A DNA stretch of 47,097 nucleotides from Salinarchaeum sp. (GTDB lineage: Archaea > Halobacteriota > Halobacteria > Halobacteriales > SKNY01), in the NCBI GenBank assembly GCA_007123105.1, contig SKNY01000065.1:1-47097 (forward strand), given 5' to 3'. The notes below the pieces were generated by a model. That model was not told where the DNA came from. It saw only the letters and a list, made by a program, of their open reading frames with translations, and did not search any database. This document shows, in pieces, positions 3,887 to 6,907 of this stretch (its first letter is position 1; every line of letters begins with the position of its first letter). The translations under genes and the position numbers were made by a program.

Positions 3887-4795
3887 ATGCAGACCCACAT
3901 CGTCCCGGTCGGGTTTGATTACGACCGGCTCATTGCGCCGCTCGTCCGGGATCGGATGGAGGTTGATCGGGTAATTTTGCTCCAAGGACCGGTCGGTAGC
4001 GAGGCAAATGTCGAGTACTCCCGTCACGTCACTCAGAAACTAGAAACCGATTTCCACAATCTGTTGGGTGCAGAGACAGAACGACGAACGATCGAAGACG
4101 TCTACGATTACGATGCCGCCTTCGAGCACGCCTACCGACTGATTGCCGCTGAACTCGACGATGGAAACGAAGTGTGGGTCAACGTGAGCGCCATGCCACG
4201 GACGGTCAGTTTTGCGGTCGCAACGGCCGCACACTCCCTGGCTGTCGAGCGAACCGAGGAGCGCGAATCGATTCACACCTACTATACGGCACCAGAGAAG
4301 TACCTGGAAACGGAGCTGGCCGAGGAACTGCGACACGATCGGGAACTTCTTCGGACACTATCGGTAACTGACCAAGACGGCGCAATCGAGCGACGCCTCG
4401 ATCGGATCGACGCAGTACTACACGAATTCGACGAACGGGGCACGACCATCGGAGCAAAGGAGATCGACGGCCACCACATCGTTGAGTTCCCGCTTGCATC
4501 ATTCTCGAACGTCAAGCCGTTCGAAGAAGTGATTCTCTTCAAACTGGGAGAAGACGGTGAATTCCAAAGTGTGAGCGAGCTTGCAGAAGCACTGGCCCGC
4601 GAACTCGAGGAGGAATTTACCGATAGCTTTCGGTCGAAGGTCATCTACAACGTCGACCGGCTCGGCCCGGGGGGCAAGGGGTATATCGAACAGGAGGAGA
4701 CGGGTAAGGCACACCGGACACGCCTCTCCCGGATCGGAGAATTATGGGTCCGGGCTCACACGGAGGAAGAAGCCGTTCAACCAGCGGACGTGTAA
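3887..4795 (+). CDS. HFX_2341-family (DUF6293) regulator: CARF-like N-terminus plus winged helix
   Basis: A 302-residue protein of a haloarchaeal family annotated as HFX_2341-type transcriptional regulators. Residues 1-150 look like a Rossmann/CARF-like sensor: a first strand HIVPVGFDYDR (4-14) with a turn into a helix, and a second conserved block VNVSAMPRT (98-106) where CARF proteins bind their nucleotide. The C-terminal third (about 195-302) has helix-turn-helix character (VSELAEALARELEEEF, then a recognition-helix-like FRSKVIYNVDRL) and ends RIGELWVRAH. The CARF assignment is my inference from pattern. No cas genes are nearby. It diverges from dnaG and its stop lies next to the TnpB element. 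Confidence 0.8.
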   Translation: MQTHIVPVGFDYDRLIAPLVRDRMEVDRVILLQGPVGSEANVEYSRHVTQKLETDFHNLLGAETERRTIEDVYDYDAAFEHAYRLIAAELDDGNEVWVNVSAMPRTVSFAVATAAHSLAVERTEERESIHTYYTAPEKYLETELAEELRHDRELLRTLSVTDQDGAIERRLDRIDAVLHEFDERGTTIGAKEIDGHHIVEFPLASFSNVKPFEEVILFKLGEDGEFQSVSELAEALARELEEEFTDSFRSKVIYNVDRLGPGGKGYIEQEETGKAHRTRLSRIGELWVRAHTEEEAVQPADV

Positions 4796-6235
4796 ACTAC
4801 CCTACCCTACTTCGCTCGGTCTGGCGACCTCGCTCGTTGAGGGCAGGACTTTCGCGTGGACTCCCGTTCTATGCCACCGTCCGTGGTAGCGGGAGGACGT
4901 ACTCCCCCACTTCCATTCAACGTCCCGCGATTCAAGCGCACGTTTACGGGCGCGCCTCCGTCGGCTGCGTTTTGCCTCCGACGGAGATACCGATAGCCGA
5001 TGTTCTTCGCCGCGTTGTAATCCGCGTGGTTCTGATACCCGCACTTCAGACATTCGAGGTGATCGCCGTCACGGTTGTCCTTGTAGTACAGCCGCACGTC
5101 GAACAGCGTTGGGACGTGTGGTTCGGCGGGACTCGCACGGCTTCGATGCCGCACTCTGTCGCTTTGTACTCGACGTATTGGAACAACCGACGGAACGCCC
5201 AGACGTGTTGCCACGTTGCTTGCGGGATGTGCTCGCGGATATGCGTTAAGTCCTCGAAGACGATGTGCGAACAGCCGGATTCGACGGCTTCCTCGGTGAG
5301 TTCGTTCGCTACGCCATGCAGGTATATCTCGAAGCGTCCGTACTCCTTGCGACCGACGCCTTCGATGGCTTCGTGTGCCGCTCGCGTCCCGGTCTGTTGC
5401 AGCGAGCCACGGTGCTTCTCGTACTCCCGTCGCCAATGGTTGAACTCACCGGCGGACCAAAACGTGCCGGTTGACGAAACGGCGAGATTGTTCACACCAA
5501 GGCCCACACCGAGGACTGTCCTGTGCTCGGTGTCGGGTTCGGGGCCGTCGGCTTCGACCTTTCGCATCGAGGCATGCAGGAACCACACACCGGTTCGACG
5601 CTGTAGGTTCGCCATGCGGAACTCGTAGCCCTCGTCTTCGAGGTAGGTCCGTGGATGACGCTCAGGGTCGTCGGGAAGGATGTAGTCGCACGCGACGCGC
5701 CCGTTGACGGTCGAAAGCGAAACGTGGTCGCGGTGGAACGTCGCGCTTCGTTTGTCGTAGACCGCGCTATCGGCGGAGAATGAGGGTTGCGACGTTCGTT
5801 CACCGCGTTTCAGCCGTGCGACACCGCTCTTGACGGCTTCGACCGCTCGGCGGACTCCATTCTGCACGAGATTCGCGGTAAGGTCGGTTTCGGCACGCAG
5901 TTGGTCGTACAAGGCACGTTCGGCTTTGGCCATTGAGGTAACGTGGTATCCGTCGTCACCATGCCAACACCATTTGCTCGCGGTGTTTGCACAGTGTTTG
6001 AATTGCTCGACCGTCTCGCGAAGGGACGCATCGGCGTCCTGAGGCACGTCGAGCTTGATTACGGCGGTACGACGGTATTCCACGACGTTTCACATAATGT
6101 GGTGGTGTTCCGTAAACATCTGGGAGCGGGACTGCCTGATAACTTGGTTCGTTGCGGAGTTCTCGGCTCTTCCCCGCCCAACTCCGTTCGCTTCGCTCAC
6201 TCCGTTGAGGAAGGGGCCTCCGCCTCGCAATTTAG
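4796..6235 (-). mobile_element. Decayed IS200/IS605-type (IS1341-like) element carrying only tnpB
   Basis: The element is defined by a broken tnpB and by atypical GC-rich, palindrome-rich flanks. On the plus strand, the stretch just after the stop of the 3887 gene (about 4796-4870) and the stretch 6090-6235 fit no host gene. The latter holds the small palindrome CACATAATGTG (6091-6101) and repeated ACTCCGTT/CGCTTCGCTC motifs. No tnpA (Y1 transposase) is present, as in IS1341-type elements. The exact ends are not resolved. The left end appears to run into the 3' end of the DUF1405 gene. No target-site duplication is expected for this family. Confidence 0.6.
4807..6083 (-). pseudogene. tnpB: TnpB (IS200/IS605 OrfB), frameshifted and lacking the first RuvC aspartate
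   Basis: An RNA-guided nuclease of the TnpB family (Cas12 ancestor). The first ORF (5046-6083, 345 residues) carries the OrfB core, the RuvC-II Glu in IVFEDL (E277) and the first zinc-finger pair CSTC (C327, C330). It then leaves frame near 5090. The other frame continues with [20 protein letters not shown], which supplies the second Cys pair and the third catalytic Asp. Adding one base at about 5091 restores the usual spacing, so this looks like a 1-nt deletion. Independently, the RuvC-I motif reads GVGLGVNNLA instead of GVDLGVNNLA: codon 194 is GGC (5502-5504), a GAC-to-GGC change that removes the catalytic Asp. Two separate lesions argue for an inactive relic, although the truncated first ORF could still make an RNA-binding protein. 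Confidence 0.85.
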
Positions 6236-6907
6236 GTGAACACTCCGCCCCCGTTCTATGCGCGTTAAAAATGCGAGGACCGTAATCCAGATCGTCAGTA
6301 CCACCGCAGCCACGGCGAGGAAATCCCCGGCCGTGGCGTTTAACCAGAGTTCGGCCTCCCGGTCGGTTGGGACCCAGGTGTGGTGGGGACCACCGACGAT
6401 CGGCACGAAGAAGTCGACGATCAAGTCGAAGGTGTACCACGTCAACGCGCCGATAATCGCCCAGGGTGGAAACCGCGCGTAGTGCTGGATCAAAAAGGCC
6501 TGGGCAACCATGAGCAGGTGGCTCCAGAAGAGAAAGTGGAACATCTCTGGATCGAGGTATGAAAAGTCCTCTCGGAAGACCAGCAGGGTGTAGGGAGTCC
6601 ACAGCCCGAGCTTGATGTTCCCATAAAACGCGAGAAGGTTGATCAACTCATTTGATCGGCCGAGCCGCCAGAGCGCCAGGCTAGCTGCCATAAACAGCGT
6701 GGCAAGCGGACTATCGGGAACCCACGGCCACATCACCAGCGGCGTGTCGGCAAGCTGGAAACGATAGTACCAGAACCCGAACGCCGTTCCGATGAGGTTG
6801 ATCACCACGATCGGCCACGCAAATCGCAGCGCGAGGGCCTCGATCCGACCAGGTAACGGCGCCACCACCCGGGATCTCACCTCCGCAAGCAACCGGGGAG
6901 CGCCCAT
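6197..6907 (-). CDS. DUF1405 family membrane protein, C-terminus probably altered by the IS
   Basis: A 236-residue membrane protein with about six to seven hydrophobic segments and family-typical stretches (INLIGTAFGFWYYRFQL, MWPWVPDSPLATLFMAASLA, NIKLGLWTPYTLL). DUF1405 proteins (YpjA-like) have no assigned reaction. The start ATG at 6907 leaves 83 nt to pdxS, which is divergent. The last residues (from about SVHLNCEAEAPSSTE) are encoded by sequence that looks like the left end of the adjacent TnpB element, so the native stop has probably been replaced. Function of the protein may be intact, since the changed part is a short hydrophilic tail. Confidence 0.75.
   Translation of the reverse strand: MGAPRLLAEVRSRVVAPLPGRIEALALRFAWPIVVINLIGTAFGFWYYRFQLADTPLVMWPWVPDSPLATLFMAASLALWRLGRSNELINLLAFYGNIKLGLWTPYTLLVFREDFSYLDPEMFHFLFWSHLLMVAQAFLIQHYARFPPWAIIGALTWYTFDLIVDFFVPIVGGPHHTWVPTDREAELWLNATAGDFLAVAAVVLTIWITVLAFLTRIERGRSVHLNCEAEAPSSTE

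What the first reader, a model, noticed from the sequence alone, without database searches (positions are those of the whole stretch)
4807..6083. TnpB with a lost RuvC aspartate and a truncating frameshift: dead relic or domesticated RNA-guided binder
The first ORF keeps the OrfB core and the first zinc-finger cysteine pair but stops in the zinc finger, and its RuvC-I motif has G (codon GGC, 5502-5504) instead of the catalytic D. Loss of RuvC residues plus C-terminal truncation is also what nuclease-dead TnpB-like repressors (TldRs) of bacteria show. The coding part is otherwise open for 345 codons, which is more than random decay would be expected to leave if it were old. Decay is still the simpler reading.
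Basis: partly seen in the sequence, partly recalled or inferred. Interest (0 to 1): 0.5.

Follow-up and report, generated by a model that had tools for sequence, protein, structure and literature searches.

The report
Decayed TnpB insertion sequence in haloarchaeon
This is an ordinary, recently broken copy of a common salt-loving-archaeon jumping gene (TnpB): its cutting enzyme has lost a key residue and its reading frame, and nothing found suggests that the cell has put the broken protein to a new use.

Summary
On the minus strand lies a tnpB ORF (5046-6083, 345 aa). Its RuvC-I aspartate is glycine (GGC, 5502-5504), and a 1-nt deletion (between 5084 and 5085) stops it inside the zinc finger. 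The missing C-terminus is still readable in another frame. The gene sits in a full-length element, 4792-6235, with a TTCAC left flank, a TTTAC right end and a guide slot next to it. The element was inserted between the convergent ends of an HFX_2341-family gene and a DUF1405 gene; three relatives have the same gene pair without it.

Domestication is not supported. All 44 uninterrupted relatives examined keep the D, and none of 394 genomes in the order has this allele. Window-only changes are 18 nonsynonymous to 4 synonymous over the open part (omega about 0.7, not distinguishable from neutral), against 33:39 pooled in intact copies (Fisher P = 0.003). The guide has no second TAM-adjacent match with two or fewer mismatches in the 67%-complete genome. 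Many sister copies carry other, independent lesions. A frame still open for 333 codons after about 20-30 random substitutions has a probability of 0.3-0.4, so it is no sign of selection. Best reading: a recent pseudogene of an IS200/IS605 (IS1341-type) element.

The parts
4792..6235 (-). Whole IS200/IS605-family (IS1341-type, tnpB-only) insertion element, about 1444 bp
   Evidence: Both ends defined by alignment with L040, L038, L042, L089 and others, where similarity begins after TTCAC and ends at GTAGTTTAC; 90% DNA identity over the full length to NZ_CP119993.1
6236..6240 (-). TTCAC, left target/transposon-adjacent motif
   Evidence: TTCAC (TTCAT in L038, ATCAC in L040, and so on) precedes the left end of related copies
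5046..6083 (-). tnpB, truncated open frame of 345 aa (GTG start), RuvC-II Glu retained, ends in the zinc finger
5502..5504 (-). GGC: Gly in place of the catalytic RuvC-I Asp (D194G in alignment numbering)
   Evidence: D in all 44 uninterrupted relatives
5084..5085 (-). Site of the 1-nt deletion that shifts the frame in the zinc finger
   Evidence: TGTACT-AC in the window against TGTACTCAC/TGTACTCAT in relatives; no relative shares it
4802..5084 (-). Frame-shifted remainder of tnpB: second zinc-finger Cys pair, RuvC-III DYNAAKN motif, C-terminus
4792..4880 (-). Right end / presumed omega-RNA 3' part: imperfect stem CCUGCCCUC...GUAGGGUAGG, then GUUUAC
   Evidence: fold (z -1.7; stem weaker than in the relative L040, z -3.3); no Rfam hit
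4772..4791 (-). Guide slot next to the right end (ACGTCCGCTGGTTGAACGGC), i.e. the former target site
   Evidence: no second TAM+guide match with 2 or fewer mismatches in the held genome
3887..4795 (+). Flanking HFX_2341_N / DUF7776 gene, whose stop is now supplied at the element border
6197..6907 (-). Flanking DUF1405 membrane-protein gene, C-terminus now run into the element's left end

Best explanation
An IS200/IS605-family element carrying only tnpB transposed into a TTCAC site between the convergent 3' ends of an HFX_2341-family gene and a DUF1405 gene of a haloarchaeon. It then lost purifying selection. Amino-acid changes accumulated across the protein, including Asp-to-Gly in RuvC-I, and a 1-nt deletion broke the zinc finger, so the product is a dead nuclease fragment without RuvC-III. 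Shown: element ends, lesions, lineage-specific relaxation of selection, sites in relatives without the element. Inferred: the order of the lesions, loss of nuclease activity (from the established RuvC mechanism), and absence of any function. The right-end stem is still largely formed, so an RNA may still be made and the ends may still be movable by a Y1 transposase acting in trans (untested).
For: Close relatives at 85-90% DNA identity have D and no frameshift at this place. D194 is invariant in 44 uninterrupted copies, and the window departs at 7 of 158 invariant columns (K51M, K75N, D194G, R224H and others) where most intact copies show 0-3. Tip-only changes in codons 1-333 are 18 N: 4 S, omega 0.68, neutral not rejected (P 0.33); intact tips have omega 0.03-0.24 and pooled 33:39, Fisher P 0.003; over codons 1-390 it is 22:7 against 37:53, P 0.0013. 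Sister copies carry different lesions: frameshift in L089, stop in L046, 52-bp insert in L041, 110-bp deletion plus stop in L095, several indels in L074, L087 and L101. The locus without an element is seen in G056, G028 and G039, and the same-genus G001 has the flanking gene with no element next to it. Published precedent: most IS1341-type genes in Haloquadratum walsbyi are pseudogenes (PMC3119063).
Against: The frame is open for 333 codons with no stop, and neutral evolution is not formally distinguishable from moderate constraint with only 22 changes. Pairwise dN/dS (0.10-0.19) still carries the constraint of the ancestral active period. No strain of the same species is held, and the genome is a 67%-complete draft, so a local assembly error cannot be excluded.
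Confidence: 0.93

Rival explanations
1. Domesticated nuclease-dead RNA-guided binder (TldR-like): the truncated protein with a dead RuvC binds an omega RNA and represses a target.
For: Loss of the RuvC-I Asp and of the C-terminal RuvC-III region; long open frame; right-end stem partly preserved.
Against: Allele unique to this genome; no purifying selection detectable; no second TAM+guide site with 2 or fewer mismatches; transposon ends still present and the guide is simply the insertion site; Glu of RuvC-II intact; second Cys pair lost through a frameshift; flanking genes are ordinary and occur together without the element in relatives.
Confidence: 0.03
2. Assembly or sequencing error (or strain mixture) in a draft metagenome-type genome created the frameshift and/or the D-to-G change in a live tnpB.
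For: Draft genome of 122 contigs, 67% complete; read coverage cannot be seen.
Against: Excess of window-only nonsynonymous changes along the whole gene, on both sides of the frameshift; the deletion is not in a homopolymer.
Confidence: 0.04
3. The protein is dead, but the locus still donates an omega RNA/guide in trans to another TnpB of the same cell.
For: Right-end hairpin and terminal TTTAC largely kept; for a bacterial csrA-tldR locus with a frameshifted tldR the authors suggest that it may still contribute guide RNA in trans (PMC13418256).
Against: No close TnpB elsewhere in the held part of the genome; the next best is 44% identical over 124 aa and interrupted. The guide matches only its own site.
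Confidence: 0.04

Closest known systems
IS200/IS605-family, IS1341-type (tnpB-only) elements of haloarchaea, e.g. copies in Halomarina halobia, Halegenticoccus tardaugens, Natronobiforma cellulositropha, Halalkalicoccus paucihalophilus
   Same: 85-90% DNA identity across the element, same ends, same protein
   Different: Window copy has D194G, a 1-nt deletion in the zinc finger and an excess of amino-acid changes
Decayed sister copies (L089 Halovivax, L046 Halegenticoccus, L095 Halalkalicoccus, L074 Haladaptatus)
   Same: Same element family, one or a few inactivating lesions each
   Different: Different, independent lesions; RuvC-I Asp kept where aligned
TldR (TnpB-like nuclease-dead repressors, bacteria)
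   Different: No allele conservation, no second guide target, no associated cargo gene, transposon ends intact, relaxed selection

Membership tests
TnpB / OrfB of IS200/IS605 (IS1341-type) | Homology over the whole tnpB frame | tested here: met
   Pfam Cas12f1-like_TNB hit; about 90% aa identity to complete TnpBs
TnpB / OrfB of IS200/IS605 (IS1341-type) | Element ends: target motif at the left end and conserved right end | tested here: met
   TTCAC flank and GTAGTTTAC right end shared with relatives
TnpB / OrfB of IS200/IS605 (IS1341-type) | Intact catalytic D-E-D triad and zinc finger in one frame (active nuclease) | tested here: not met
   D194G; frameshift separates zinc finger half 2 and RuvC-III. 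The copy is a member by descent, not an active one.
TldR (domesticated TnpB repressor) | RuvC active site lost | tested here: met
   D194G plus loss of RuvC-III by frameshift
TldR (domesticated TnpB repressor) | Conserved as a clade under purifying selection | tested here: not met
   No other copy with the allele; omega about 0.7, neutral not rejected
TldR (domesticated TnpB repressor) | Guide targets a genomic promoter away from the element, next to a TAM | tested here: not met
   Only its own site with 2 or fewer mismatches; 3-mismatch hits about as many as the reversed-pattern control, 15 in all against 10 (genome 67% complete)
TldR (domesticated TnpB repressor) | Stable association with a non-transposon gene | tested here: not met
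   Neighbour pair occurs without the element in G056, G028 and G039
TldR (domesticated TnpB repressor) | RNA-guided DNA binding | not testable with these tools
   Needs RNA-seq/ChIP-seq or binding assay

The most novel reading that the evidence does not exclude
A very recent archaeal exaptation in which a truncated, RuvC-dead TnpB of an IS1341-type element keeps binding its right-end RNA and its insertion site, or a target in the missing third of the genome, and acts as a repressor.
Probability: 0.02. Interest if true: 0.6.

Novelty: already known. Interest (0 to 1): 0.08.

Why it matters
It matters little in itself: decayed IS1341-type tnpB genes are common in haloarchaea. It is a useful caution that RuvC residue loss plus truncation, read from one genome, does not show TldR-like domestication; allele conservation, selection and guide targets have to be checked.

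Tried and rejected
(1) Viral contigs: no relatives. (2) Rfam sotRNA/omega-RNA families: no hit at the gathering threshold over the window, nor at E up to 5 over 4700-5200. (4) The first tip-only count (26:8) included a compensating indel pair near codon 394, so it was repeated for codons 1-333 and 1-390. (5) Programmed frameshifting: rejected, because no relative has the shift and the site is not a slippery run. (7) Wiegand et al. 2024 (TldR) is not in the library; TldR features are taken from PMC13418256.

Full report
What is there. On the minus strand a 345-codon frame (5046-6083) encodes most of a TnpB protein. Reading TVLGVGLGVNN where relatives read TVLGVDLGVNN, it has lost the RuvC-I aspartate (GGC at 5502-5504). 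The frame ends inside the zinc finger because one base is missing: the window reads TGTACT-ACAAGG where relatives read TGTACTCACGAGG or TGTACTCATGAGG. The rest of the protein, with the second cysteine pair, RuvC-III motif and C-terminus, is still readable in the next frame down to 4802. RuvC-II (FEDLTH) is intact.

The element. Alignment with the closest copies fixes the ends: TTCAC at 6236-6240, the element from 6235 to 4792, and the right end ...GTAGTTTAC, followed by the guide slot ACGTCCGCTGGTTGAACGGC. It was inserted between the convergent ends of an HFX_2341_N/DUF7776 gene and a DUF1405 gene. Joining the two flanks gives ...CCAGCGGACGTGTGAACACTCC..., in which both genes end within a few bases of each other (stops read by eye). 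Three relatives show the same convergent pair with no element. The only same-genus genome held has the HFX_2341 gene with no element beside it but a different neighbour. The left and right ends are those of a tnpB-only IS200/IS605 element. No tnpA lies between the ends; an intact Y1-transposase frame lies elsewhere in the genome, near another tnpB.

Relatives. The genome-wide scan gave 67 loci, the closest at 86-92% protein identity in Halegenticoccus, Natronobiforma, Halomarina, Halalkalicoccus and Haladaptatus. D194 is invariant in 44 uninterrupted copies. Among 394 genomes of the order (drawn evenly from a larger group) only this one has the truncated allele among the best matches. Several sister copies are broken in other ways: L089 by a frameshift, L046 by a stop, L041 by a 52-bp insert, L095 by a 110-bp deletion and a stop, L074, L087 and L101 by several indels. 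Inactivation is therefore frequent and independent in this family. That most IS1341-type elements of Haloquadratum walsbyi are pseudogenes is published (PMC3119063).

Selection. I counted changes unique to each tip at positions where all other close copies agree. Over the open part (codons 1-333) the window has 18 nonsynonymous and 4 synonymous changes (omega 0.68; neutrality not rejected, P 0.33). Intact copies have omega 0.03-0.24, pooled 33:39; the difference has Fisher P 0.003. Over codons 1-390 it is 22:7 against 37:53, P 0.0013. The window departs from 7 of 158 otherwise invariant columns; most intact copies depart from 0-3, with exceptions (L075 11, L082 5, L066 4). An omega between the intact values and 1 fits a branch that was constrained at first and neutral later. 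Pairwise dN/dS (0.10-0.19) is low only because it includes the constrained past. The open frame is not evidence of constraint: with a stop-creating fraction of 4.05%, 20-30 random changes leave no stop with probability 0.44-0.29.

Domestication tests. A TldR-like regulator should be conserved, under purifying selection, and have a guide against a site elsewhere. None is met: the allele is unique, selection is relaxed, and TTCAC plus the first 11 guide bases has no match with 2 or fewer mismatches except its own site. With 3 mismatches the total (15, own site included) is close to the reversed-pattern control (10). The held genome is 67% complete, so a target in the missing third cannot be excluded. 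The right-end stem is still formed, somewhat less stably than in L040, and no Rfam family matches. RNA expression and DNA binding could not be tested.

Verdict.

Noticed in passing
L038, L042, L039, L089 (right end, between GACGG and TGGCATAG); L041, L046 (zinc-finger codons, after TACAACG); L039 (left end, after GCGAAG): 52-59 bp 'double hairpin' inserts (two adjacent near-perfect stem-loops; stem sequences differ between positions, architecture is the same) sit at three different places in relatives of this element. They differ in size from the roughly 110-bp SMR-A repeats known to target haloarchaeal IS605 elements (PMC3119063) and may be another small mobile repeat.
   Followed up: partly
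window 4785-4800 and 6197-6245: The element border supplies a TAA stop to the HFX_2341 gene almost in place (GTG TGA becomes GTG TAA), whereas the DUF1405 protein gains a new C-terminal tail from the element's left end.
   Followed up: partly
window 4890-4920(-): Relative to L040 the window has a +1/-1 compensating indel pair near tnpB codon 394, a further sign of loose constraint.
   Followed up: no
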